Under the pieces are notes generated by a model. That model did not search any database, was not told where the DNA came from, and saw only the letters and a program-made list of their open reading frames with translations. DNA of 64,000 bases from positions 1 to 64,000 of the forward strand of contig JACTVC010000037.1 in NCBI GenBank assembly GCA_018417955.1, given 5' to 3'. Origin of the DNA: Laccaria trichodermophora (taxonomy: Eukaryota > Basidiomycota > Agaricomycetes > Agaricales > Hydnangiaceae). Of this stretch, positions 43,840 through 62,170 are shown piece after piece. The translations under genes were made by a program, and so were the position numbers. Position 1 is the first letter of the stretch, and each line of letters starts with the position of its first letter.

Positions 43840-46665
43840 TCAGAGGCTCCCAAAAGCAGCGGCTCCGTCCAAAATCGTCGCCAACACCTTCGTCTCCATA
43901 ATCTCTTCCGCACTCACTTCCATGATATCCCGGTCTAGCACCACGAAATCTGCCCTCTTGCCCACCTCCAGTGAGCCTAAGGTGCCTTCCGTGAAGGATG
44001 CGTAGGCTGGGTCGATGGTCATGCCGCGGAGAGCTTCGAGTCGGGTGAGACGCTGTTCAGGGAACCTGGAGGTGACGTAAACACTCGAGTTTTTTTTCGA
44101 GAAAAGCGAAGAGATGAAAAAGAGAAGAGGACTTACCAGCCCCCTTTTCCGTGAGGTGATTTGCCATCAAAAGACACCCTTGTAATGGCGGCGTAGAATC
44201 CTGCGAGGGGGTTAACGCCCTCGACGGGAAAGTCGGAGCCGAGGGTGATGCGTGCGCCGTTGTCGAGGAGACTGCGGAATGCGTAGAGGCCTTTTACTCG
44301 TTCTGGGCCCTGGTTTATTGTTTATGGGTATAAGTGACCGTATTTTGTGAAGAACAAGTGTGTAGGTGGTGATAAGGGCATGCGGGGAGCACGGGGGTAA
44401 TGGGAAGGGGGGTAATAAAAATGAAGAGCGGATGATCGTGATAGGGAAGAGGGATACGTAATAAGGAAGGAACAAGTGACGAGAATAAAAGAAGGGTGTG
44501 TGCGACTTACGAGGCGGGGTTCCGCGAACCACATATCACTTATTCTATTTGATTTCCGTCAGCATAACATTTGGACAGGCGGGAGATAGCCGTGAGGACT
44601 CACACATGTGTTGGCTGGATGCTAGCAATGACTATAAAGTGAAATTGTAGTATCAATCAGCGCGCACTCAAAATGCTCATCAAGCAATGCACCTCCAAGC
44701 CTTCCAAGACGCGCCATATCCTCCTTTGTCATGATTTGCGCATGCTCAAGCCGTGGTCTGAGAGCAGAAAAGTTTGCTTTTTTAAAAGCTTCCTCGAACG
44801 CATCTAAAACAACACCGTTGGCGCGGTCGCCAATCGCGTGGACGTTCTAAGGGGAAGGTAAATGTTATATGTATCGAAAAAGGGCGCACGTACCACTTGC
44901 CAACCATCCTTGAGGAACTGGGGGATAACTTCGTGAAACACATGATCAGGAAGACGCATTTGGCCACTGGTAGATGGATTATCCGCGTAAGGTTCATATA
45001 ACTAATGATTATAATTAATTAATAAGAGTGAAACAGGCCGTGGAGAAGGGGGTGAAACGTACAGCCGCACCACCAGTCCTCAGCGCACCTAAATCCAGAA
45101 AACTAAGCAGATGATTCAATGGAGTGATGCAAAATAGTCCTACCATCCGCAAAGATCTTGACGCTCCTCGCTGTCAGCCTATCATCCGGCGTTCCAACAA
45201 GAGGTGTTATCTGATTTCCCCAATACGGGCCGTTCTCATCAAAGTAAGTCATCCCATAGATTCGTATCTTGAAAAAATCAGCTCGTGATTATCTTATCCT
45301 GACCAAAAGGATGAACTAACTTACAGGCAAGGGTCCCAACGCGGTTTGTCTTGCGGTTTAAGAGTTCGAAGTGGGAAAATAGTTCAAGAAAAAGGTAGGG
45401 AAGAGCCTAAATCAGTAAGGCTGTGCGAACACGAGGCCGGGGAGATGCAGCGTACCGTCGGAAGAAAGCCAGGGAATCAGGCTTGAATCCTGCGTCGTGT
45501 AGGGACGTGAGACCATGTTGGAGACTGTGGTCCACTGTGGTTTTGAAGCGGCGATAGAGGTCGTCGTCGGTGAGAATCGGGTGTTTGATAAGTTCTTGAG
45601 CATTGTCCATGAATACACCTAATAAACCCCTCCATGCATGAGCATAAGCGGAAGCGAATATCAAATAATTACCTGTTGGCTCCCCATTCTCGTCACGCAA
45701 GATAACACCGCCTTCAACCGAATCGGGGAAGGGTGCATTTGCGTCCAGGGTAGCTCGCGATACCCAGATGGCGTGACCATCACGACTTTGAAGTATGATG
45801 GGGCGGCCCTTGATGAGAGGATAAGCGTCTAAATCACGCTACATGTCGATGTTCACGTCAGATCACTACGGAGCAGGAACACGCGTTACGCCTCACCCAA
45901 GTTGGCATCTTCTCAACATCCCAGGACGCATGGTCCCATCCCCATCCTTCGATGATATGCGTGGGGTCGGATTCGAGATCCGGATGTGCTTTGATGTAGT
46001 CCGAAACGAAGGACGCAGTTTCTGGGCGGAAAGGTTGAGTGTTTGTTAAGGGGATGGCAAGGATGGGAAGATGCCTTTGGCGTTTTTCCCCAGAGAAAGA
46101 GGGATTTGACGGCTGGCACCGTATTCGAGGATGTGGCAATGCGAATCTGTGTAGGACGTTGGCAAGGGAAGGGGTACTAGGCGGGGGACGAACCACTGAG
46201 GCCGGGGACAACGATAGTGCCTGGGGCGAGATGGCGAACAGTGAACGATTTTCCACCTGATTTCTTCCATCTCTCACGGATATCATCTGAGGGGTCCGGA
46301 TGAATAAACACCACAAGCATAGGAAGGGGGAACAACGCACGGAGAGAACCGATATCGCTAACATAACGGCCCTCCACCAACATACAGTCAACTTGCGTGT
46401 TTTGCTTGTCTACCGTAAAGATTCCTTTCCTCTTGCCAGCACAGACAGCATACGTCCCAGAGATGTTAGAATCATCACGTGGCGAGAAATAGGCGAGGGT
46501 GGACAGAGCCACTATAGCGCATAGGAGCTTAAAGCCCCAGTTGAGTGGTGGTTTTGAGGGTGTAGTAGGCGCTTGCCTTTTGAGAAGCGGCGCTGATTCA
46601 GAGGGTGCGTCTTTCTCCTTGGCAGCTTCCGGAGGAGTTATAGGTCTGTGGTGAAGATTAGACAT
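43840..46665 (-). CDS. membrane-anchored amidohydrolase-3 family metal-dependent hydrolase
   Basis: Zinc-type amidohydrolase of the YtcJ/amidohydrolase-3 group; substrate unknown. The ATG at 46665 gives a cytosolic N terminus (MSNLHHRPITPPEAAKEKD), one membrane segment (LLCAIVALSTLAYF, residues about 47-60) and a lumenal/extracellular enzyme, so a type II topology is inferred. Intron 1 (GTGCGTTG to CCCTCAG, about 46338-46288) joins GSL to HDDIRERW. Metal motifs: DSHCHILEYGAS (HxH), NVHAIGDRANG and LGSDFPVEGVNPLAGFY. Other exons carry EGWGWDHASWDVEKMP, HSLQHGLTSLHDAGFKPDS, YGMTYFDENGPYWGNQI and RLEHAQIMTKEDMARLG. The C terminus reads EGTLGSLEVGKRADFVVLDR to AFGSL and a stop at 43840. All pieces join through GT-AG introns without a visible lesion. 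Its 5' end is duplicated at 47.9-48.4 kb. Confidence 0.88.
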
Positions 46666-46869
46666 GGAGCTGACTTTGACAAGCTGCAAGAGAGTGAGAA
46701 AGAGCTCTTAAAGGCTCTGCGGGCGACAGGCGTGAGGCTGGAAGAACCAATTTTTGAGGGCATCACTGCATAGCCTCGACGGTTGAGTTTGTGGGCGTCT
46801 ATTTCACATCGGCACGCGCCGGCGTTTCCACCCGCATGTTTGTTTACCGTAAGGAACCAAAGCCATAAA

Positions 46870-47890
46870 CCAGTCCTGTCGATGAAATGAACACACCGAC
46901 TGGGCTCAAGTTCATCGATACTGCTGATCAAGCAAAAGGAATAAGAATTCCGGAAGCCCTAAGTCATTTTTCAAATTCGAGCGTTCAAAGCTTCGCCCTT
47001 GGCGCCTCAATCTCCATTCCCACAGAATTTAATTAATATTGAGAAGTATAGCTCCTCTACGTAATAAACAATAAGGGATATTGTTATGATGGCGATATGT
47101 AACTACGATAGGTAAAGAATGTGTTTTATGAGACGGATGAAGAGAACCTTGCGAGAGAGATTGGAGAGAGAATATGAGATGTTTGGGGACCCCAACTTAG
47201 ATTTGGTAAGTTTGCAAATGATCTTAGATGATTGGTAGTATTCCTCCGTAGACGCCATTTCAACTGGTAAATTGTGACTCTCGTATATTTGCCATTGACG
47301 TCGCACGAATTGTCTAGATCGTCTTGGTTAATAGACCACGGGAGCGAAAACCGGCATACAATTGTAAGGGATAACAGGCGCAGACGGAGGCTCAATGTTG
47401 CGGCTGGTCATTTGAATAGTCGGCTGTCGCACATTCGGCATCGGCATGGGTATGATACTGCTACACCGACGTCGCCTTGGTTGATAAAACGTATCCGCAG
47501 CAGGGTAAAACGCAGAAGCAGAGGTAACAGGTGCCGAATCTGGAGGACACGTATTAACATCGAAAATCGTTGCCTGTCGCATATTTGGCATGGGCATCTT
47601 CGGGACGAGGCTGGTATATCGACGCCGTCTAGATTGTCCTCGTTGGTAAGATGGATCGGCAGAAGGACCAGAAACGGGCGGAGGAGCTGGAGTACTGTAA
47701 CACAAAGGCGCAGTGTGACCGTATCCAGACGCACGCGAAGCATAATCTGAACCCAAAGATGCCTCAGCAGGACCAATCACCAGCCTCTTAATCGTTTTCT
47801 TCTTCTTTCTTCGCGTCGACACCATGTCATAGCTATAACTCGAATAGCTTGTCCGGTCTTCACTGAAATCTCTCTTCACAGAAGCATATG
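46870..47890 (-). repeat. duplicated block T1: cyclin tail plus 3' flank
   Basis: This block matches 52500-53510 (block T2) in coding tail and 3' flank. Shared words include CACACCGACTGGG, AGTATAGCTCCTCTACGTAA, GGTAAAGAATGTGTTT and, inside coding, ATTGTAAGGGATAACAGG. Differences are scattered substitutions and small indels. Confidence 0.85.
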
Positions 47891-48230
47891 AAGGTACAGC
47901 GGGGAAGAACGCACGGAGAGAACCGGTATCTCTAACATAAGGGCCCTCCACTAAGATACAGTTAACTTGCGTGTTTTGCTCGTCAACCGTAAAGATTCCC
48001 TTCCTCTTTCCAGCACAGACAGCGTACGTCCCAGAATCATCACGTGGCGAGAAATAGGCGAGGGTGGACAGAGCCACTATAGCGTATAGGAGTTTAACGC
48101 CCCAGCTGAGTGGTGGTTTTGAGGGTGCACTAGGCGCTTGCCTTTTGAGAAGCGGCGCTGACTCGGAGGCTGGGTCTTTCTCCTTGGCAGCTTCCGGAGG
48201 AGTTATGGGTCTGTGGTGAAGAACAGACAT
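47328..48230 (-). CDS. chimeric gene: amidohydrolase signal-anchor fused to cyclin C-terminal tail
   Basis: A continuous 300-residue frame from ATG 48230 to TAA 47328. Residues 1 to about 105 copy exon 1 of the neighbouring amidohydrolase (MSVLHHRPITPPEAAKEKDP..., membrane segment about 44-60, ending DTGSLR). Residues about 106-117 (AFFPAVPSYASV) are a read-through of the former intron 1, whose GTGCGTTCTTCCCC start is still visible. From about residue 118 (VKRDFSEDRTS, near 47880) the protein is the C-terminal tail of the cyclin at 52.9-54.1 kb, to the shared end MPVFAPV..Y. The tail is disordered, basic and proline-rich, with two copies of MPMPNxRQxTI. It lacks both the catalytic domain and the cyclin box. 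With type II topology the tail would be lumenal. The frame has no stop or frameshift. Whether it is expressed is unknown. Confidence 0.8.
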   Translation of the reverse strand: MSVLHHRPITPPEAAKEKDPASESAPLLKRQAPSAPSKPPLSWGVKLLYAIVALSTLAYFSPRDDSGTYAVCAGKRKGIFTVDEQNTQVNCILVEGPYVRDTGSLRAFFPAVPSYASVKRDFSEDRTSYSSYSYDMVSTRRKKKKTIKRLVIGPAEASLGSDYASRASGYGHTAPLCYSTPAPPPVSGPSADPSYQRGQSRRRRYTSLVPKMPMPNMRQATIFDVNTCPPDSAPVTSASAFYPAADTFYQPRRRRCSSIIPMPMPNVRQPTIQMTSRNIEPPSAPVIPYNCMPVFAPVVY

Positions 48231-48420
48231 GTAGCTGAATTTGACAAGCTGCAAGAGGGTAAGAAAGAGCTCTTAAAGGCTCTGTGGACGACAGGCGTGT
48301 TGACTGTGCATAGCCTCGAAACAATTTGTCGGCGTTCAGTGGGCGTCTATCCCCACATCGGCATCCGCCGGTGTTTCCTACCACGTGATAAAATTCAGTC
48401 CGCTTCATCATACTACGCCA
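47880..48420 (-). repeat. duplicated block A2: 5' end and promoter of the amidohydrolase
   Basis: Homologous to 46290-46865 (block A1). It covers exon 1, the leader (AGAAAGAGCTCTTAAAGGCT in both, + strand) and the upstream region with GCGTCTAT and CATCGGCA..CGCCGG.GTTTCC. The encoded first ~105 residues differ at roughly one in seven positions. Confidence 0.85.
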
Positions 48421-49261
48421 TCACAGTGACACTGATCAAGCAAAAAGAAGAAGAATCGTCCAAGAACCTGGCTGGGCCCTGCTGGGCCTTGTCGTTAGGC
48501 GTACCCGGGCCGTTACTAGATATGGTTTTGTTTGTACTGGTGGCGAGCTTCTTCCAAGTTCTTCCCGCCATGCTGGAGAGAGAGATGGCGAGGATGAATG
48601 TTGTCGACGGAAACAGTCTTCCGCCAGCTTCGTTTTTGTAAGGTGATCGTCTTCTACTTTTATGCATCAGAATCAGTCTCTCGGAAGCATTTCCCATTGA
48701 CACTGACGGACGCACTCACGTAGCCTGCATCACCGCTATTCAACTTTTTAGAGTGGGTGAGTCCCTTGGACTAGTCGCTTTGACTAACTACTACCTTTGT
48801 CTTACCAGGTAAATGGGTAGCCGCCCAACCGTGCGAGCACCATACCCATCATCCGTATCATGGTGCCGCGTTGGTGCCAGTGCGGTACACTTGAAACAAA
48901 CTTGGAAGCCCCCGACGCCGATAATATTCCATTTTGGTCTTGGTCGTAGAAGTACCATGGATTTTCGTTCAAGTTCGCCCTACCTTTTTCCGTCTATTGC
49001 TCTTGCTTGCCTTGTATTCCTCACCTCCGATCCGGTTGCCCGAATTACCTCCTTCACCTCCCGGATTCGTCTACTACGCTCGTCTTTGAAACTACTTAAC
49101 GCCATTCCTTTTAATCACTCTCTTTGCTCCACCTACCCATCAACTCCCCTCCGGACTCGTCTACTACGCTCGTCTTTGAAGCTACTTAACGCCATTCCTT
49201 TTAATCACTCTCTTTAATCCACCCATACATCAACTCCCCTCCATCCCAACGAAGAAAAAAA
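48421..49261 (+). promoter_or_regulatory. 5' flank of SKN1-like copy 1
   Basis: No gene of its own. It aligns with 58095-59035 upstream of copy 2: GATCAAGCAAAAAGAAGAAG at the start, GGGCCTTGTCGTTAGGCGTA, GCCATGCTGGAGAGAGA, CTTCTACTTTT.TGCATCAG and a pyrimidine-rich stretch before the start codon. A 50-60 bp unit with CGTCTACTACGCTCGTCTTT is tandemly repeated at about 49070-49215 in this copy only. Confidence 0.6.
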
Positions 49262-52182
49262 ATGACCTTCGACCAACCCCCACCCGAATACCACCACTCC
49301 TGGACAGCCTTGTCTTTCCCCCCTTCACCAAAGCCAGCACCAAAATCAACCGCCCAACCAGAACTCCAGACCCACCCATCGGCCCCCCGGCATAGTTCAC
49401 ATTCGCACAGCACTTTGCCTACGGTACGTTCCCTCTTTCCAGAATTAAACAAATACATGAATAGTGAATTGTACAGGACGACTCACCATACTCTTACGCG
49501 TCTACTCAATCCCCAACTAGAACACCTCCAAGTTTCCTCTCCGAAAAGGTAGTCCCTTCTAACTCTCTAAACCTGTCCTTCCTTCCTGACTCTCCTCAAA
49601 CAGTTCGCCCTCTCCCCCGATGTTCATACATGGGGCACAAACCTCTTCCCTCATATCCACGAACCGGACGACTACCTCCATACACCCGATCCTGACGACT
49701 TAGACTCCAAGCGCACCACGGATTTTTTTTCAGTTAGGGGGATGGTGAATGTGGGGGGTATGTTCGCTACGTGTGTTGGGTTGTTGACGTTGTTGTACGT
49801 CCTCTTCTCTTTTTTTTCCCTTCTCTTCCCTCGCCCTCTTCTCCTCCCTTCACTTTTCTCTTTCCCCTTCGTCGAGGGCATACAATGCAAGTGCTGAAAT
49901 TCTGAGTACCCGTATAGTCTTATATATCCCATCTCAACGCACTTTACTTCCCACCAACAAAGGAAGTTCGGGGGGTTCAATTTGGGTGGGATCAATGCGT
50001 CTGGGCAGGTACGTTCTCTCTTCTCTCTTCTCTCCCCTAGCCTCACTTAACCAATTACATAACATGTCAGGTCCCAAGCATGCCGGGGAACTGGGGCCTA
50101 ATCGATTTAGACACGCCTCTAAACCTACACACAAAAGCATCCTACCACGATCCCTCACAAACACTCCAGCTCGTGTTCAGCGATGAATTCAATACCGACG
50201 GGAGGTCTTTTTATCCGGGGGACGATCCGTATTGGGAGGCTGAGGATTTACATTATTGGCAGGTACGGCGTCCTACGCGTTACCTTGTCACTTATCCTTT
50301 GTATCTCGCCATAACTGACCGTATCATCTCTGACAGACGGGCAACTTGGAATGGAACGACCCCGCCGCAATAACCACAGCCAACGGTTCCCTCCTCATCA
50401 CACTCTCGGAACAACAAACCCACGGACTAGACTTCCAAGGCGGGCTCATCTCAACATGGAACAAGTTCTGCTTCACCGGTGGTCTATTGGAGACCTCCGT
50501 CCAGCTGCCGGGCGCGAACAACATCGTGGGGCTGTGGCCTGCTGTATGGGCTCTAGGAAATTTAGGTACGCAATCTTTTTTTTTGGGGGGGGGGTTCATC
50601 CGAGTTATACGGGTTGACATCAATTAATTTAGGACGAGCAGGGTATGGTGCAACCTTGGAAGGCCTGGTACGTCCCCCCTGCCCTCCCTCTTCCTCTTTC
50701 TTCTATCAACCCCCGGCCCTCTTTTGCAGTGGCCATACAGCTACGACGCCTGCGACGTCGGCACAGCCCCCAACCAAACACACAACGGGCTCCCCCTAGC
50801 AGCGTTGACAAGCGGCGACCAGAAATACAACGGGTCTTTATCATACCTCCCCGGACAGAGGCTTTCGCGGTGCACGTGCTCAGGCGAGTCTCACCCCGGC
50901 CCGATGCATCGTGATGGGACGTTTGTGGGGAGGTCGGCGCCTGAGATTGACGTTTTTGAAGCTACGGTGAGTGTGGTCGTTTTTATTGGTTCTTGATCAA
51001 ACTTGAATTATTTGTAGGTCTTGGGTACGCCATTGGTGGGGAAGGTAACTCAATCAAGTCAATGGGCTGTAAGCTCCTCCTTTATCCCATTACCAGTATA
51101 TTATTAACGAGGAATGGTGTGTATAGCCGTTTAATGATGGGTACGGGTGGGCGAGCACTTCTCAGAACATGATCATCCCGAACACGACTGGAACTGAACT
51201 GAACTCCTATGTTGGAGGAGTAACGCAGCAGAGTACGTCTGGGCTTACGATTACCGGTGGGTTTTTACTTCTTGGCTTCGGGGTAATGTTTGTTTGATAT
51301 TGTGTGGTGCGTAGATCAGGGATGCTACGAGTTGGAAGATGGTTGTTTTTCTACGTATGGGTTTGAGTACAAGCCAGGTCCGCACTTTCCTTCTCTACCC
51401 GTTTTCGGGCTCTCATTTAACGAAAAGAAATTCGCAGGGTTCGATTCTGCGGTTCGCATCATCCCCTCATCAATCATTTATCCGATATTAACTTCGTTCC
51501 TGGACTGGATAGTACATAACCTGGATATCCAACTCGACCGTATCATGGACCATAATGGCCGCTGGTATGGACGCAGACACAACCGTTGAGATATCCGCGC
51601 GTCCTGTACCTCAAGAGCCCATGGTGCGCACAATCTCACGACTGAGCCCACCTCACCTCACTTCAATTTCCCCTGCAGTACCTGGTAGCAAACCTGGGAC
51701 TATCAAATAGCTTCGGCGACGTTGACTTGGAGCACCTCACATTCCCGACTACGATGCGGATTGACTGGATACGGGTGTACCAACCCACCAACGCCATCAA
51801 TATAGGATGTGATCCAGTGAATTTTCCTACGGAGACGTATATCAACGAGTGTGTTCTTTTTTTTCTTTCTTTTTTTCCCGTTTTCTTCGCTGAGTCTGCT
51901 TGAATTTTCTATCTCTTTGATTCTGCTTAGACTTTTTTTGAGTCTACTTAGACGTTCTTTGAGGCTGCTTTAACTCTCTCCCAGTCTGCTTCGGATTCAG
52001 AATTACTGTTCTTCTATACTTCCCCTTTTCCTTTGCTTCTCGCCAATATGATCTGTCTCGATTATTTTTAACGGTCTTGGTTCGATAGGTACATCGCAGC
52101 ATACACAAATCCGAATCTTACGACGTGGCGAGATGACTACAAGCAGCCGTGGCCGAAGAATAGTTTCGTCGATGCGTGTTAA
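49262..52182 (+). CDS. SKN1: SKN1/KRE6-like GH16 beta-glucan synthesis protein, copy 1
   Basis: Type II membrane GH16-fold protein needed for beta-1,6-glucan assembly in fungal walls. The ATG at 49262 (AAAAAAATGACC) gives MTFDQPPPEYHHSWTA. A cytosolic low-complexity region follows, then DDSPYSYASTQSPTRTPPSF, ALSPDVHTWGTNLFPHIHEP and a membrane segment (MVNVGGMFATCVGLL). After an intron ending GTATAG comes LIYPISTHF and KFGGFNLGGINASGQ. GH16 core: LIDLDTP, LVFSDEFNTDGRSFYPGDDP, YWEAEDLHYWQ, LITLSEQQTHGLDFQGG, WNKFCFTGGLLETSVQLPG, CDVGTAPNQTHNG and the acidic catalytic-type motif APEIDVFEAT. A 14-nt exon (51438-51451) encodes the middle of KPGFDSAYITW. The end is KQPWPKNSFVDAC and TAA at 52180-52182. 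About 15-16 exons, no lesion found. Near-identical to copy 2. Confidence 0.92.
51845..52088 (+). repeat. degenerate GAGTCTGCTT minisatellite in last intron of copy 1
   Basis: The last intron carries about six imperfect units of the type GAGTCTGCTT followed by A/T-rich filler, spaced about 23-30 bp. The same array lies in the last intron of copy 2 (about 61645-61870). Confidence 0.7.
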
Positions 52183-52938
52183 GGGCTTTAGCTAGACCTT
52201 TTTGCACGGATACTAGATCGGGAGGCCTTGTATTGATTGGAGTGCGGGTCATCGTTTAATTTATTCGTATTATCGTGTAGGAACACTCTGGTTGTTCATG
52301 TCTTGCATGTTTTATTGGATGTCCGCAGGGCCCATTAAAGTAACTTTTTCCCCCCCCAAATTAACATGAGCGTCGGATAGACCCTGTGATAAGTTCAACA
52401 GTTGTGCCATCATGGTATTTATCTAAAAGAGACAGGATGTTTAATTTTAAAATACATATTGTAATGGGAAATACAAGATAACCGTAATTCATAAATCAGT
52501 CGATGTCGATGAAATGCACACACCGACTGGGTATAAGTTCATCTATACTACTGATTCAGCAAATAAAAGAAGAATTCTAGAAGCCTAGGTCTACGTTTTC
52601 ATACGGCGTTTGTCAACTTCTTACATTCAATCTCCATTCCAACAGAACTTAATTAATGATAAGGAGTATAGCTCCTCTACGTAAACAATAAGGAATGTTA
52701 TTGTGATGACAACATAGTAAGTACGATAGGTAAAGAATGTGTTTGTTCTGCCAAAGGTAGCCTTGCGGAAGAGAAGATGAGATGATTGAGGACCCCGGGG
52801 CCCGAAAGGTTGTTAGGTTCGCAAATCGTCATAAACGGTTGATAGCAATCCTCCGTAGACGCCATTTCAACTGATAAACTATGGCTCTCGTAGTATATTT
52901 GCTATTGAAGTCGCGCGAATATGGCGGGATCGTCTTGA
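52183..52938. other. 3' flanks of SKN1 copy 1 and of cyclin 1 (convergent)
   Basis: 52183 to about 52345 aligns with the flank after SKN1 copy 2 (GGGCTTTAGCT, TTTTTGCACGGATACTAGAT, CGGGAGGCCTTGTATTGATT, ATGTCCGCA). From about 52500 it aligns with block T1 near 46870. Confidence 0.7.
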
Positions 52939-54059
52939 TTAGTAGACTGGCACGGGAGCGAAAACAGGCATAGAATTGTAAGGGATAACAGGTGCAGACG
53001 GAGGCTCAATGTTGCGGCTGGTTATTTGAATAGTCGGCTGTCGCACATTCGGCATCGGCATAGGTATGACACTGTTACACCGACGTCGCCTTGGTTGATA
53101 GAACGTATCCTCAGCAGAGTAAAACGTAGAAGCAGGGGTGACAGACGTAGAATCGGGAGGACAAGTCTTAAGAAAAGGAATCGTTGCCTGTCGTATATTT
53201 GGTATGGGCATCTTTTGGACGAGCCTGGTATATCGATGTCGTCCAGATTGTCCTGGTTGGCAAGATGGATCGGCAGAAGGACCAGAAACTGGCGGAGGAG
53301 CTGGAGTACTGTAACGCAAAGGCGCAGTGTGGCCGTATCCAGACGCACGCGAAGCATAATCTGAGCCCAAAGGTGCCTCAGCAAGAACAAGCACTAGCCT
53401 CTTGATCGTTTTCTTCTTCTTTTTTCCTCGCGGCGACACCATGTCATAGCTGTAACTGGGGTAGCTTGTCCGGTCTTCACTGAAATCTCTCTTCACAGCC
53501 TCCTCGAACACCTTCAGCATAGGCCCAAAAATTGCCAGCTTAAAGCCTAAATAATCGCACATCTGCCGTTCCATCTCATTAATCAGTTTATGCGTGAACT
53601 GATTGCGCGAAACAGTAACCCAAGCGTTGTTTTTGTATGTGCTATCGTTGAGGATCTTCGTTGCGAGCATTAGGGTCGTTATGAAGAGCTGTTCTCCGCC
53701 CATTCCGTTTGCCTGTGGATTATATTTTGGAGACGCCGGAGAAGGATCAGGGAGGAGTATGTCACAGAGGTGTGGACTTGACTTCGGTATAGAGCGTAGG
53801 CGATAAATCTGGGAAGACTCTGCTGTCTGTGTGATCTCCGGAGGAGTGAGAAGAGACTCCGAATGAAGCGGTCGCAGAGACGGGCGATGGGCTCGAATCC
53901 ATAGTATGGCGCTGATATGGAGAGTTCGCGGGGAATGGTGACGTAGTACTGTGGGGGTGCATAGGTGGTGACAGCGCTGGCCCAGCGGAAATAGTAGTGA
54001 TTGTAGTGGTAAGCAATCATTCGACTGTCGTAAGCTGTCGTTATGTGCGTGCAATACAT
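52939..54059 (-). pseudogene. PHO80/PCL-type cyclin 1, frameshifted in the cyclin box
   Basis: Cyclin partner family of Pho85-like kinases. The ATG at 54059 gives MYCTHITTAYDSRM, then YFRWASAVTTYAPPQYY, APYYGFEPIARLCDRFIRSL and FIAYALYRSQVHTSVTYSSL-ILLRRLQ. At about 53720-53728 one base is missing relative to cyclin 2 (CTC CAA AA TAT). The protein continues in the next frame with NPQANGMGGEQLFITTLMLA, TKILNDSTYKNNAWVTVSRN, QFTHKLINEMERQMCDYLGF and KLAIF, then the basic tail (VKRDFSEDRTS, KKKKKTIKRL, MPIPNIRQATI, MPMPNVRQPTI) to 52939. As written the frame-A product ends shortly after the shift. The other frame is open upstream to 54174, giving a misleading 411-codon ORF. Alternatives are a sequence error or a very recent pseudogene; the rest looks conserved. 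Confidence 0.78.
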
Positions 54060-55382: not shown

Positions 55383-56198
55383 TCAAGTGGGTAGAGTCCT
55401 CGGTCGAACAAGCCACCCGTTAGGTCGACTCGGAAGCGACAGAGGCGAAGGGAGAGCAGCGGGATAGTGCGCAGAAACGTAAGGGCCACGAGGGGGTACG
55501 TGACTAGACCCGAAAGGGGGCGCAGCCGGAGGGACCATGTTCGCAGGAGCAGACCGCCCTTGTTTCGCCTTCCGTTCCAGGAACCTCTGAGGCGAGTAAC
55601 TTGGGTAGCTCATCCTATCTTCACCAAAATCCCGCTTAATCACCTCCTCAAACTCATGCAACTCCTCACAAAAAATGGCCAGCTTATAATTCATACGCTG
55701 ACACATTTCCCTCTCCATCTGATTAATAAGCCGATGCGAGAATTGGTTCTGCGAGACGGCAACCCAAGAACTATTCGCATACGGCGTGTCGACTAACACC
55801 TTCGCAGCGATCATCATCGCGCTAATGAACAGCTTCCGTCCAGAATCCCCATTCGCCTCGGGATATTGCGTTTTGAAGCGGTGGAGGAGCAGAAGGGCGG
55901 CATATGTCACTTGGGGTTGTAGTTTGGTCCGATGTAATGAGTAGGCGATGAATTGGGATAAGCTCTGGTGCATCGGTTCGCTTGTACATTTGAAGAGACT
56001 CCGTATGAAACTCGCGCAGAGGCGGGAGGGGGATTCGTACCCGTAGTAGGGCGCTTCTGAGAAAGAGGGTTGGGGAGGGATCATTGAGGGGAATAGAAGG
56101 AAGGCTTGTGGGGGCGCGTAGGTGTGCGCACCGGAAGCCCAGCGAAAGTAGGAATGTTGGTAGTGCTGACTGAGCGGCGCTATGCTAGCCATGTACAT
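55383..56198 (-). CDS. PHO80/PCL-type cyclin 2
   Basis: Single-exon gene of 271 residues from ATG 56198 (a second in-frame ATG is at 56192) to a stop at 55383. The N terminus reads MYMASIAPLSQHYQHSYFRW. Cyclin box: EAPYYGYESPSRLCASFIRS, SLSQFIAYSLHRTKLQPQVT-YAALLLLHRF, YPEANGDSGRKLFISAMMIA, AKVLVDTPYANSSWVAVSQN, QFSHRLINQMEREMCQRMNY and KLAIFCEELHEFEEVIKRDF, with GEDRMSYPSYSPQ shared with cyclin 1. The tail after that is unrelated in detail: basic/proline-rich and shorter. PHO80/PCL cyclins bind a Pho85-type CDK and control phosphate, glycogen or cell-cycle responses; which applies here cannot be told. Intact, and a useful reference for the cyclin 1 frameshift. Confidence 0.85.
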   Translation of the reverse strand: MYMASIAPLSQHYQHSYFRWASGAHTYAPPQAFLLFPSMIPPQPSFSEAPYYGYESPSRLCASFIRSLFKCTSEPMHQSLSQFIAYSLHRTKLQPQVTYAALLLLHRFKTQYPEANGDSGRKLFISAMMIAAKVLVDTPYANSSWVAVSQNQFSHRLINQMEREMCQRMNYKLAIFCEELHEFEEVIKRDFGEDRMSYPSYSPQRFLERKAKQGRSAPANMVPPAAPPFGSSHVPPRGPYVSAHYPAALPSPLSLPSRPNGWLVRPRTLPT

Positions 56199-59035
56199 GT
56201 CGGGGAGAGAATTACTGGATAGTTGATTATTGGTGGAGACAAAGAGTGAAGGTGGGGAGTTTATAAGGAACGCAGGTGGGTGGCCTCTGCGCTTGACAAT
56301 GCTGTAAATTCTGCGGGCCCACAGGCCACAGCGGCCCCGTTTGTGGCCCTTTGTGCGCAGAGTGCCTTGCCTCAGCCTTCGTCGACAAAAGCCCATGAGG
56401 TTTTTAATTGTCAATTAAGAAAACGCTGGGTTCATGAGGTTGCAGTGGCTTGTCGATTGGAAAGTACACAGTGGCGAGGTAAGCGCCCATGGCAAGGGCG
56501 GTCCCGCCGGTGATGTGGTTACGACACAAACAATCATTCAAGTTGGAATTTTTGTTCATGAAGGTAAGAAGGTCATTTACCTTGAGTTTGAGCCCGAGCG
56601 AATGAGTCACATTTTGCATGATTCGAGAGTTGTCAGTTGAACGTTGAACTTTCAGGTTGGATGTGTCGCGCACGTGATGCGAATCATGCGATACGGAGTT
56701 TGAAATTTCACCTTGCCTCCCAAGTGCTACTCTCCTCGTCGTCCACCAAACCACCGGGTCTCATAGATACCCTCCAGGACCGGGAAGTACACCTACTATC
56801 TTATTACGAGATGGAACTCGAACGTGCTTCAGTAAAACGATGATGAGAAGAACGAATAGTTCTCCGGGATGAATGCTTGCCAACGAACCCGTCACGCCCT
56901 GTATTGTTTTCGCGCAGCAATCCATTTTTATGTTTGTCAAATTCCGCAAGGCCTCTGACAATCCAGTGGAACGACGTTGGCGAAGAGATGCGGGCAACGG
57001 ATTGGGGCGCCAAATCGCAGAGATTTTTGTTGGGTTTCTGAGCTGGCGAGTCCGTCATTTTCAGACTTCCTTTACCAAATCACAATTGACAAGTCGCGTT
57101 GTGTTTCAAGTAGATCTCAAATCTACGGTAGGTGCACTTTCAGGCCTTCAGTGAGTTGCGCTTACAGTACAATAACCTGACCTAGTGCGCCTGAATCATT
57201 CATACTAAAACACTGCTTCGACTTCAACGTGTATTCATCTACGTACTGTTACTCCGTCGCGTAGGGGGAAGCGCGTGGAAATTTCGCCGCTGGGACAGGA
57301 AACATGCTCATTTTATTGAGGGGATCAAGAGAACCAGTTCAACAGCACAGGACTGTACTTCCACTGGCGGCCTCGGAAAGAGGGTATTTGGGCAAATGTT
57401 GACGTCTGCAAGGGATATTGTTCGTGAGTTGGTTCGTCCTGATCCCGCGGCTGGGTTTGCTGACAGCGTTGGTATTTATCAGTCTGCGGCGATGCTAATG
57501 AGTGGCGGACTTGCTAGGCGCCCGTACACGAAGATCGTGGGGGTTATCTTTTAAGGGGACATAATTTATCAGGTTGGGGTTGAAAGTGAGGTATGTATGT
57601 ATACCGTTTACCTTCTGAAACGCTGAAGCGGAAATGTCCAGCCCGAGGCGTGGCCAGGCTTTGTAAATCCTGGCTTAGGTTGGCCCGCGGCTTTCACGCC
57701 GGGCAGTCACGTCGATATCATTCCTGCCACTCCGCGTCCCTACCCACCCATCTCACCCCATTCCCGCTATACTACCTCACTCTCTCTACTTGTTGCAAGG
57801 CAGGACCATCACCTGACATATCTCCTCAAACGCCGTGCAGCGCATTCTGACCGCTTCTGACCTCTCCATGCCAACGCTCATGAGTAGTGAAATGGAATAA
57901 ACAGGACCTTCGCAACAGACGCAACTCCGCATATGCTTTTGTTTTTTCTCAGAGTTTCGGCTAACGTCACGGTGATTTGGATGACTGTTGCGGCGACCGG
58001 GGGAATGCTTTTTGGATTGGATGAGAGTTTGAGGTTGAGTGAGTTGTCAACAAGCGGCAAGTAGTGACCAGTTGACCGGTGGATGATTGTACCGACTACT
58101 ACTGATCAAGCAAAAAGAAGAAGAATTCTGGAAGCCCTCGCCAAGAACCTCCGAGTCTGGGCCTTGTCGTTAGGCGTACCGTTGCTAGGGAGGAATTTGG
58201 CCTTGTCTGTATCGGTCCCGCCATGCTGGAGAGAGATGGCGTGCCAGATGAATGTTGTCAACTACCTATGTATACCCACTGCGCACGGTATACTTATGTG
58301 TAAGAAGTGTTATCGACTCACTACCAGTCTCTCGTAGGAGGAAGCTCGGCTTAGTGCATTCTTGACGACGGCAGGCGACCAATTGATATTTCCTTTATAA
58401 CTCTGACGTCGATATACTCCAGCTTGCAAATATGGTATGCGCTTAAAGCGTTTAAACTCTACTTCAATATTATGCTAATCAGCTTCTACTTTTCTGCATC
58501 AGAATCAGTCTCTCGGATGCATTTTTCATTGACATTCACGGCCCGGGACGCACTCACGTAGCAACGAAAGTGCGCTGCATCACCGCTATAGACCGTTATT
58601 CAACTTTTTCGAGTGGGTGGGTCCCTTGGATTAGTCGCTTTGACTTACTACTACCTATATCTTACCAGGCAAGCCCAAATGGGTACCCGCCGAATCGTGC
58701 GAGCACCATACCCATCATCAGTAATCATGGTGCTGCGAAGTTGGTGCTGCGGTACACTTGAAACAAACTTGAAAGCCCCCGATGCCGATAATATTCCATG
58801 AATCTTGATCTTGGTCGTAGTACCATGGATTTCCGTTCAAGTTTGCCCAAACGTTTTCCGTTTGTTGCTCTTGCTTGCCTTGAATTACTTACCTCCTCCC
58901 GTTGCCCGAATTACCTCTTTCACCTCACGGACTCGTCTACCGCTCGTCTCCCAAATTACTTGACGCCATTCCTTTTACTCACTCTCTTTACTCCGCCCAT
59001 CCATCACCTCCCCTCCATCCCAACGAAGAAAAAAA
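56199..59035. other. promoter of cyclin 2, unassigned sequence, then 5' flank of SKN1 copy 2
   Basis: No firm gene. A + frame around 57390-57555 reads QMLTSARDIVRELVRPDPAA and continues to KIVGVIF-stop without a recognisable start. From about 58095 the sequence is homologous to the 5' flank of SKN1 copy 1 (48430-49261), with indels. Confidence 0.45.
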
Positions 59036-62000
59036 ATGTCCTTCAACCAACGCCCACCCGAATACTACCACTCCTGGACAGCCTCATCTTTCCCCCCCTC
59101 ATCAAAGCCATCACTAAAATCAACCCTCCAACTAGCACTCCAGACCCACCCCTCGGCCCCCCGGCATATTTCACATTCGCGTAGCACTTTGCCTAGGGTA
59201 CGTTCCCTCTTTCCAAAATTAAACAAATGGTAATGGATAATGAATTGAACAGGACGACTCACCATACTCTTACGTGTCTTCTCAATCCCCAACTAGAACA
59301 CCTTCAAGCTTCCTCTCCGAAAAGGTACTCCCTTCTAACACCTTAAACCTGCCCTTCCTTCCTGACTCTCCTCAAACAGTTTACCCTCTCCCCCGATCCT
59401 CAGACATGGGGCACAAACCTCTTCCCTCACATCCGCGAACCAGACGACTACCTCCATACACCCGATCCTCACCACCTAGACTCCAAGCGCACCACGGATT
59501 TTTTTTCAGTTAGGGCTATGGTGAATGTGGGGGGTATGTTCGCTACGTGTGTTGCGTTGTTGGCGTTGTTGTACGTCCTCTTCTCTCGCTTTTTTTCTTT
59601 CTCCTCCCTCGCCCTCTTCCCCTCCCCTCACTTTTCTTTTTCCCTTTGCCGAGGGAACACAATCCAGGTGCTAAAATTTTGTGTACCCGCATAGTCTCAT
59701 ATATCCCATCTCGATGCACTTTACCATCCACCAACAAGGGAAGTTCGGGGGGTTCAATTTGGGTGGGATCAATGCGTCTGGGCAGGTACGTTCTCTCTTC
59801 TCTCTCCTCTCGCCCCTGGCCTCACTTAACCTTCACACAACTGAATAACCTGCAAGGTCCCAAGCATGCCGGGGAACTGGGGCCTGATCGATTTAGACAC
59901 GCCTCCAGACCTATACACCAAACCATCCTACCACGATCCCTCACAAACACTCCAGCTCGTGTTCAGCGACGAATTCAATACCGACGGGAGGTCTTTTTAT
60001 CCGGGGGATGATCCGTATTGGGAGGCTGAGGATTTACATTATTGGCAGGTACGGCCGTCCTACGCGTTACCTTGTCACTTATCCTTTGTATCCTGCCGTA
60101 ACTGACCGTAACATCTCCGACAGACGAAAAACTTAGAATGGAACGACCCCGCCGCAATAACCACATCCAATGGCTCCCTCCTCATCACACTCTCGGAACA
60201 ACAAACCCACGGACTAGACTTCCAAGGTGGGTTCCTTTCAACATGGAACAAGTTCTGCTTTACCGGTGGGCTATTGGAGACTTCCGTCCAGCTGCCGGGC
60301 GCGAACAACATCGTGGGGCTGTGGCCTGCTATATGGGCTTTAGGGAATTTAGGTACGCAGTTTTTTCTGGGGGGGTTCATCCGAGTTATATGGATTGACA
60401 TCAATTAATTTAGGACGAGCAGGGTATGGTGCGACCTTGGAAGGCCTGGTACGTCCCCCTGCCCTCCCTCTTCCTTTTTCTTCTATCAACCTCTGGCCCT
60501 CTGTTGTAGTGGCCTTACAACTACGACGCCTGCGACGTCGGCACAGCCCCCAACCAAACACTCAACGGGCTCCCCCTAGCAGCGCTCACAAGCGGCGACC
60601 AGAAATACTTCAACGGGTCTTTATCATACCTCCCCGGACAGAGGCTTTCGCGGTGCACGTGCTCAGGCGAGTCTCACCCCGGCCCGACGCATCGTGATGG
60701 GACGTTTGTGGGGAGGTCGGCGCCTGAGATTGACGTTTTTGAAGCTACGGTGAGTGTGGTCGTTTTTGTTGTTCTTGATCAAACTTGAATTATTCGCTCG
60801 GATTTGTAGGTCTTGGGTACGCCATTGGTGGGGAAAGTATCTCAATCGAGTCAATGGGCTGTAAGCTCCTCCTTTGTTCCTCCCATTACCAGTATATTAC
60901 TGACGAGGAGTGGTATGTACAGCCGTTTAATAACGGGTACGCGTGGGCGAACACTTCTCAGAACATGATCATCCCGAACACGACTGGAACTGAACTGAAC
61001 ACCTATGTTGGAGGGGTGACGCAGCAGAGTACGTCAGGGCTTACGATTACCGGTGGGTTTTTACTTCTTGGCTTCGGGGTAATGTTTGTTTAATATTGCG
61101 AGGTGGGTAGATCAGGGATGCTACGAATTGGAAGATGGTTGTTTTTCTAAGTATGGGTTTGAGTACAAACCAGGTCCGCAGTTTCCTCCTCTACCCGTTT
61201 TTGGGCTCTCATTTAACGAAAAGAAATTCGCAGGGTTCGATTCTGCGGTTCGCATCATTCCCTCATCAATCATTTATCCGATAATAACTTCGCTCCTGGA
61301 CTGGATAGTACATAACCTGGATATCCAACTCGACCGTATCATGGACCATAATGGCCGCTGGTATGGACGCAGACACATCCGTTGAGATATCCGCGCGTCC
61401 TGTATCTGAAGAGCCCATGGTGTGCACCATCTCACGACTGAGCCCACTTCACCTCACTTCAATTTCCCCTGCAGTACCTAATAGCAAACCTGGGACTATC
61501 AAATGGCTTCGGCACTGTTGACTTAGAGCACCTCACATTCCCGACTACGATGCGGATTGACTGGATACGGGTGTACCAACCCACCAACGCCATCAATGTT
61601 GGATGCGATCCAGAGAATTTTCCTACGGAGGCGTATATCAACCAGTGTGTTCTTTTTTTTCTTTCTTTTCTTCCAGAGTCTGCTTGAATTTTCTATTTCT
61701 TTGAGTCTGCTTAGACTTTTTTTGAGTCTACTTCGACGTTCTTTGAGGCTGTTTAACTCTCTCCCAGTCTGCTTCGGATTCAGAATTACTGTTCCTCTAT
61801 ACCTCCCCTTTTCCTTTGCTTCTCGCCAATGCTCTGTCTCTGGATTGTTTTTAACGGTCTTGGTTTGATAGGTACATCAAAGCATACACAAATCCGAACC
61901 TTACGACGTGGCGAGATGACTACAAGCAACCGTGGCCGAAGAATAGTTTCGTCGACGCGTGCTGAGGGCTTTAGCTGGAGCTTTTTGCACGGATACTAGA

Positions 62001-62170
62001 TCGGGAGGCCTTGTATTGATTGATTGGAGTGCGGGTAATCGTACTATAATTTTGTTTGTATTATCGTTGAGGATGGGAGGATTAGAATTCGAATCCAATG
62101 TAAAGCACTTTGATTGTTCAAACGTTCATGCCTCTTTATTGAATGTCCGCAAAAAGGGCCCACCGAAGTA
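58095..62170 (+). repeat. segmental duplicate of 48430-52345 (SKN1 unit 2)
   Basis: The homology starts in the 5' flank (GATCAAGCAAAAAGAAGAAG at about 58102), covers all exons and introns of the SKN1-like gene and ends about 200 bp past its stop. Introns are nearly as similar as exons, which argues for a young duplication or gene conversion. Confidence 0.92.
59036..61965 (+). CDS. SKN1: SKN1/KRE6-like GH16 beta-glucan synthesis protein, copy 2
   Basis: Same architecture as copy 1. The ATG at 59036 gives MSFNQRPPEYYHSWTA, then DDSPYSYVSSQSPTRTPSSF, TLSPDPQTWGTNLFPHIREP and a membrane segment (MVNVGGMFATCVALLAL). After the intron ending GCATAG comes LIYPISMHF and GKFGGFNLGGINASGQ. The GH16 core includes LVFSDEFNTDGRSFYPGDDP, WNKFCFTGGLLETSVQLPG, CDVGTAPNQTLNG and APEIDVFEAT. 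The 14-nt exon is 61234-61247. The end is KQPWPKNSFVDAC and TGA at 61963-61965. Differences from copy 1 are mostly single residues (for example DQKYFNGSL against DQKYNGSL, and VSQSSQWA against VTQSSQWA), including a one-codon indel. Intron positions are identical. No lesion found. Confidence 0.92.

What the first reader, a model, noticed from the sequence alone, without database searches (positions are those of the whole stretch)
47328..48230. A new open gene built by joining an amidohydrolase 5' end to a cyclin tail
Seen: residues 1 to about 105 match exon 1 of the amidohydrolase at 43.8-46.7 kb, and residues from about 118 match the C-terminal tail of cyclin 1. The ~12 residues between are a read-through of amidohydrolase intron 1 (GTGCGTTCTTCCCC still visible). 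Frame is kept over 300 codons with no stop, while both parents and the promoter copy are in the same window. Inference: a duplication brought a ready promoter, start codon and membrane anchor to a domain-less tail, a textbook-style but here directly visible case of gene birth by exon shuffling with intron-to-exon conversion.
Basis: partly seen in the sequence, partly recalled or inferred. Interest (0 to 1): 0.86.

Follow-up and report, generated by a model that had tools for sequence, protein, structure and literature searches.

The report
Chimeric gene at duplication junction
In a fungal genome, likely that of a mushroom relative, a 300-codon open reading frame joins a copy of the start of an enzyme gene to a copy of the tail of a neighbouring cyclin gene, most likely because a short stretch of DNA was duplicated head to tail; this is a known route to new genes, and whether this one makes a protein is untested.

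Summary
On the minus strand, 47,328-48,230 is one 300-aa ORF: residues 1-105 copy exon 1 of the neighbouring amidohydrolase (AH), 106-117 are AH intron-1 sequence read through, and 118-300 copy the C-terminal tail of cyclin 1. AH upstream sequence and cyclin 3' flank were copied too. The order AH | cyclin-tail copy | AH-5' copy | ... | cyclin 1, all one orientation, is what a head-to-tail tandem duplication from AH intron 1 to mid-cyclin leaves at its junction, a known way to make chimeric genes (Drosophila, PMC5460883).

The old intron donor is intact and a plausible 52-nt intron remains; splicing it would give about 133 aa, so intron-to-exon conversion is unproven. Pairwise dN/dS is 0.48-0.60; the chimera branch alone is not clearly below neutral. 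Frame retention is the best sign of constraint (neutral survival 0.2-8%). None of 6 database hits carries both halves. No RNA or protein data were available.

The parts
47328..48230 (-). chimeric ORF, 300 aa
47916..48230 (-). residues 1-105: copy of AH exon 1 (parent 46341-46665), with a hydrophobic segment at about residues 41-60
   Evidence: hydropathy; low-confidence helix 43-60
47880..47915 (-). residues 106-117: AH intron-1 remnant read through; donor GTGCGT at 47909-47914 intact
   Evidence: P0006
47879..47881 (.). duplication junction (AH intron 1 / cyclin-1 coding sequence)
   Evidence: blastn ends; alignment
47863..47914 (-). candidate 52-nt GT-AG intron; splicing would shift the frame and leave about 133 aa
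47328..47881 (-). residues 118-300: copy of the cyclin-1 C-terminal tail (parent 52939-53498), stop codon TAA in both
46864..47327 (-). copied cyclin-1 3' flank (parent 52490-52938)
48231..48395 (-). copied AH leader and upstream region (parent 46666-46835)
43840..46665 (-). parent 1: amidohydrolase, 15-exon model, 613 aa, open throughout
   Evidence: Pfam on the relative P0007
52939..54059 (-). parent 2: cyclin 1 (Cyclin_N), one-base frameshift near 53724-53727
48431..52282 (+). SKN1/KRE6-like gene copy A and its upstream region, present in only one of the two duplicate units

Best explanation
The ORF joins a copy of amidohydrolase exon 1 and part of its intron 1 to a copy of the cyclin-1 tail, and was most likely created at the junction of a short head-to-tail tandem duplication running from amidohydrolase intron 1 to mid-cyclin; it is predicted to be transcribed from the copied amidohydrolase upstream region and, if the old intron donor is ignored, would be translated as a 300-aa protein. 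Shown: the copied pieces, their order and orientation, the junction, and the open frame. Inferred: a single tandem duplication in this lineage, followed by arrival of the SKN1/KRE6-like gene in one unit (or its loss from the other). Inferred: weak selection for the frame, with individual residues evolving fast. Predicted: a protein with an N-terminal hydrophobic anchor that would put the disordered, Pro/Arg-rich cyclin tail on the far side of a membrane.
For: Own-genome searches find only the ORF and its two donors. blastn pairs 46312-46734 with 47879-48299 and 46864-47881 with 52490-53498, all in one orientation, the layout of a tandem-duplication junction. Both outer flanks were copied with the ORF. 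Across the ORF, chimera and parents differ by indels of 9, 3 and 3 nt, with no net frame change and no stop; one further stretch (TIPFLKT to TIFDVNT) reads as a pair of compensating short indels under two of three gap settings and as substitutions under the third. The 3' flank has 14-19 indels in about 435 aligned bases, only 4-5 of them multiples of 3. Neutral simulation keeps such an ORF in 0.2-8% of runs over 9 settings. Gene conversion shows no clear sign: synonymous divergence is 0.13-0.16 against 0.14-0.20 in the flanks, and the longest identical run is 49 where a median of 50 is expected.
Against: No RNA or protein evidence was available. Pairwise dN/dS of 0.48 (NG86, bootstrap 0.31-0.77) to 0.60 (ML) mixes chimera and parent branches. 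On the chimera branch 24 amino-acid substitutions (5 + 19; 20 without the TIFDVNT block; 2 further sites ambiguous) are not clearly fewer than neutral (P from 0.012 to 0.34 depending on assumptions), and its tail branch is the longest of the three close ones (0.119 against 0.066 for cyclin 1 and 0.037 for P0001). Four-fold sites differ by 11.6% (16 of 138), somewhat below the flanks. The intron donor is intact with a usable-looking acceptor. No relative with both halves was found (0 of 6).
Confidence: 0.55

Rival explanations
1. A non-functional duplication relic: the duplication happened as above, but the ORF has stayed open by chance and makes nothing that matters.
For: The chimera branch has near-neutral amino-acid change. 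Substitutions alone leave it open in 10-38% of neutral runs, and neutral survival with indels reaches 8% under the lowest indel rate tried. A third of possible joins would be in frame at birth. No fold is predicted with confidence (mean pLDDT 40.9, 8-row alignment) and no Pfam domain was found.
Against: No net frameshift or stop over about 300 codons although the flanks are full of indels; copied upstream and 3' regions are both present.
Confidence: 0.35
2. The chimera is transcribed but its hybrid intron (47,863-47,914) is spliced, so the product is a 133-aa truncated AH N-terminus and the cyclin tail is untranslated.
For: The donor GTGCGT is unchanged and scores 7.3 (the model was trained on 14 AH introns including the parent intron with the same donor hexamer; the parent scores 5.3 when left out). 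The acceptor TTTCAG scores 5.1, a branch-like TTCAT lies 26 nt upstream, and 52 nt is a usual length (11 of 14 AH introns are 47-61 nt).
Against: GT-AG pairs with equal or higher scores occur inside the cyclin-derived tail (for example ORF positions 497-544), in a stretch that five related cyclin ORFs keep as conserved reading; those readings may not be splice-aware, so this is a weak control. Frame retention downstream would be unexplained.
Confidence: 0.2
3. Assembly artefact joining two loci.
For: The junction could not be checked on reads, and the cyclin-1 frameshift lies in a homopolymer, where sequencing errors are common (recalled).
Against: The copies are 8-20% diverged with their own indels, so a false join would have to use sequence that exists nowhere else in the assembly.
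Confidence: 0.03
4. Variant of the best explanation: the duplicated unit was about 5.6 kb and included the SKN1/KRE6-like gene, later lost from the chimera's unit.
For: That gene lies between AH-5' and cyclin sequence in the second unit.
Against: Sequence left of that gene resembles the AH-cyclin spacer of the first unit (alignment score 64 against a shuffle maximum of 46.5), which leans to insertion, but part of that score comes from shared AH upstream sequence.
Confidence: 0.35

Closest known systems
[quoted passage not shown] PMC5460883, passages read; also PMC4503668, passages read)
   Same: A tandem duplication whose ends lie inside genes joins the 5' part of one gene to the 3' part of another.
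   Different: This case is fungal and diverged (dS about 0.13-0.16), with an intron remnant read as coding sequence. No expression data exist here, whereas 24 of the 76 fly chimeras showed raised expression over at least half of the duplicated exonic sequence.
FfSpdsSr, a natural fused gene of Flammulina filiformis and other basidiomycetes (PMC10051792, abstract and outline read)
   Same: A chimeric gene in a basidiomycete.
   Different: There two enzyme genes are fused and the chimera is reported across basidiomycetes; here two gene fragments without a Pfam domain are joined and the joined form was seen in one genome only.
Quetzalcoatl of Drosophila (search listing only; details recalled)
   Same: Recalled as a chimera of parts of neighbouring genes made by tandem duplication.
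   Different: Recalled as having population-genetic evidence of selection; none exists here.

Membership tests
Chimeric gene born at a tandem-duplication junction | 5' part of one gene joined to 3' part of a same-orientation neighbour, both donors retained, order as expected for a head-to-tail duplication | tested here: met
   the cyclin donor is present but frameshifted
Chimeric gene born at a tandem-duplication junction | Duplication covers the continuous interval between the two breakpoints | tested here: inconclusive
   AH upstream sequence and cyclin 3' flank are in both units, but a roughly 4-kb gene region lies in only one of them
Chimeric gene born at a tandem-duplication junction | Transcript across the junction | not testable with these tools
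   no RNA data for this strain
Functional protein-coding gene | Purifying selection on the chimera's own branch | tested here: inconclusive
   pair dN/dS 0.48-0.60, one-sided P 0.037 for the pair; chimera branch P 0.012-0.34; frame survival 0.2-8%
Functional protein-coding gene | Presence of the joined form in relatives | tested here: not met
   0 of 6 hits among 4,603 candidates carry both halves: residues 1-117 match only P0006, residues 118-300 match only P0001-P0005; expected for a lineage-specific birth, and sampling is limited
Amidohydrolase family (Amidohydro_3) | catalytic amidohydrolase domain | tested here: not met
   Pfam: 0 families in the ORF; the domain starts at residue 127 in the AH relative P0007, beyond the copied exon 1
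Cyclin family (Cyclin_N) | cyclin box | tested here: not met
   Pfam: 0 families in the ORF; in P0001 the box is residues 80-174 and the copied tail starts at 188

The most novel reading that the evidence does not exclude
A lineage-specific fungal gene in which one 1.6-kb tandem duplication gave the tail of a cyclin a promoter, a start codon and a membrane anchor, and in which a former intron is now coding and kept in frame by selection, so that a former cell-cycle tail now works inside a membrane compartment.
Probability: 0.25. Interest if true: 0.55.

Novelty: new member of a known kind. Interest (0 to 1): 0.36.

Why it matters
If expressed, it is a clean natural case of gene birth in a fungus, with both donors, the copied upstream region and the junction all in one place, after enough divergence to ask whether selection keeps the frame. 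It also poses a simple test: does a leftover splice donor stay silent when its intron is cut in half?

Tried and rejected
Retrocopy origin was rejected, because intron sequence and both flanks were copied. Gene conversion as the reason for the open frame was disfavoured, because synonymous and flank divergence are similar and identical runs are of expected length. Chance similarity was rejected. Pfam on the ORF gave nothing. AlphaFold with 8 rows gave mean pLDDT 40.9 with 274 of 300 residues below 50, so no fold search was run. Protein trees favour the chimera as sister to the window's own cyclin 1 but do not exclude the alternatives (AU 0.74, 0.35, 0.06). The AH-half tree was unresolved. Splice-site scoring with 14 AH introns could not decide splicing. 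The compensating-indel reading of TIFDVNT depends on gap penalties (2 of 3 settings). A search with P0001 gave 6 hits including itself and no named organism. Organism: not identified; the 15 named AH relatives of the 16 hits are all Agaricomycetes (class recalled) at 33-50% identity.

Literature searches. Among the listed papers were Drosophila and rice chimeric genes and one basidiomycete fusion. I saw no report of this AH-cyclin fusion there, but no search named these two families together.

Full report
What is there. The minus-strand ORF 47,328-48,230 is open for 300 codons. Searched against the window's own 59-Mb, 77-contig assembly, it matches itself and two neighbours only, with DNA and with protein. 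Those neighbours are exon 1 and the start of intron 1 of an amidohydrolase (AH) at 43,840-46,665, and the last 560 bases of a cyclin at 52,939-54,059. blastn of the window against itself pairs 46,312-46,734 with 47,879-48,299 (88.6%) and 46,864-47,881 with 52,490-53,498 (82%, including the 3' flank). The two matches meet at 47,879-47,881. Residues 1-105 are AH exon 1, 106-117 are AH intron-1 sequence, and 118-300 are the cyclin tail.

The intron is real. The AH model has 15 exons and 613 aa without an internal stop. A relative, P0007, is 609 aa and reads straight across the exon 1 / exon 2 border where the spliced model does (GSLHDIRERWKK), and its contig is at most 2,095 nt, so it is probably a cDNA. 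A second relative, P0006, is an unspliced reading with PPVPSYA where the chimera has PAVPSYA, and it matches chimera residues 1-116 at 85%. The chimera's linker is therefore most likely older AH intron sequence; the window's own AH has a 7-base gap there.

How it arose. All donor pieces keep one orientation, and the order is AH, cyclin-tail copy, AH-5' copy, SKN1/KRE6-like gene A (opposite strand), cyclin 1. A head-to-tail duplication from AH intron 1 to mid-cyclin produces this junction and leaves both donors in place. This is inferred from layout; the event itself was not seen. The SKN1/KRE6-like gene lies in one unit only, and a diverged second copy lies at 58.9-62.1 kb. Insertion into one unit is slightly favoured over loss from the other. 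An element of about 40 bp recurs at 46,919, 48,431, 52,546 and 58,097 and may have guided that rearrangement. Being in frame at birth needed little luck, since 33% of 12,960 breakpoint pairs give an open fusion.

Age. Protein states shared by the chimera and the window's own parents, but not by the relatives, point to a duplication after the split from those relatives. Examples are the tail motifs GYGH and QPTIQ against P0001-P0005, and AIV plus two to four extra residues before the APLL stretch against P0006 and P0007. Two tail sites point the other way: cyclin 1 and P0001 share S where the chimera and P0002-P0005 have P. Trees favour the lineage-specific reading without significance. The joined form is absent from the 6 database hits found among 4,603 candidates.

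Is it a gene? For: between chimera and parents there are 77 substitutions in 288 codons, no stop, and only in-frame net indels (9, 3 and 3 nt); one more stretch reads as compensating short indels under two of three gap settings. The 3' flank has 14-19 indels in about 435 aligned bases. Simulated neutral evolution keeps the ORF in 0.2-8% of runs, depending on the numbers of substitutions and indels assumed. Against: pairwise dN/dS is 0.48 (NG86), 0.56 (YN00) or 0.60 (ML) and includes the parents' constraint. Polarised changes give the chimera 24 amino-acid substitutions and two deletions, against 18 substitutions and one insertion in the parents, with 2 sites ambiguous. The chimera branch is not clearly slower than neutral (P 0.012-0.34 over the cases tried), and its tail branch is the longest of the close three.

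The donor problem. The donor of AH intron 1 is intact in the chimera. A 52-nt GT-AG candidate with usual length and scores ends in cyclin-derived sequence. Splicing it would shift the frame and end the protein at about 133 aa. GT-AG pairs with equal or higher scores also occur inside the cyclin-derived tail, which five related cyclin ORFs keep as conserved reading, although those readings may not be splice-aware. Sequence alone cannot settle this.

What it would do. The 300-aa product has no Pfam domain and no confident fold; a helix at 43-60 appears at low confidence. The AH catalytic domain and the cyclin box both lie outside the copied parts. Its N-terminal hydrophobic segment (mean hydropathy 1.43; 1.13 to 2.19 in 10 of the 17 AH relatives; 1.10 for the cyclin P0001 as a soluble yardstick) would make it a membrane-anchored protein displaying a disordered, basic, Pro-rich tail. 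That is a prediction, and the low end of the range is no better than the cyclin.

Comparison. Chimeric genes formed at tandem-duplication junctions are described in Drosophila (76 in D. yakuba, 24 of them with raised expression; PMC5460883, passages). A natural fused gene is known in basidiomycetes (PMC10051792, abstract). This is a new fungal member of a known kind, notable for the intron remnant and for having all donor pieces in view.

Noticed in passing
53724-53727 (-): Cyclin 1 has a one-base frameshift in an A run inside the cyclin box relative to P0001: either real decay of the parent or a homopolymer sequencing error.
   Followed up: partly
46022-46074 (-): AH intron 3 needs a GC-AG donor (GCATCT), yet the resulting protein reads as in the spliced relative P0007 there.
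   Followed up: partly
49145-52282 and 58920-62073 (+): Two copies of an SKN1/KRE6-like gene region, 91% identical including introns (Pfam on copy A only).
   Followed up: partly
46919, 48431, 52546, 58097: A roughly 40-bp element recurs in the 3' flanks of chimera and cyclin 1 and upstream of both SKN1/KRE6-like copies.
   Followed up: partly
47551-47567 (-): TIPFLKT of cyclin 1 is TIFDVNT in the chimera; this reads as compensating short indels under two of three gap settings and as substitutions under the third.
   Followed up: partly
49061-49240: 90-bp tandem duplication upstream of SKN1/KRE6-like copy A, 92% identical.
   Followed up: no
55383-56276 (-): A second cyclin (Cyclin_N) next to cyclin 1 with a different tail.
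   Followed up: no
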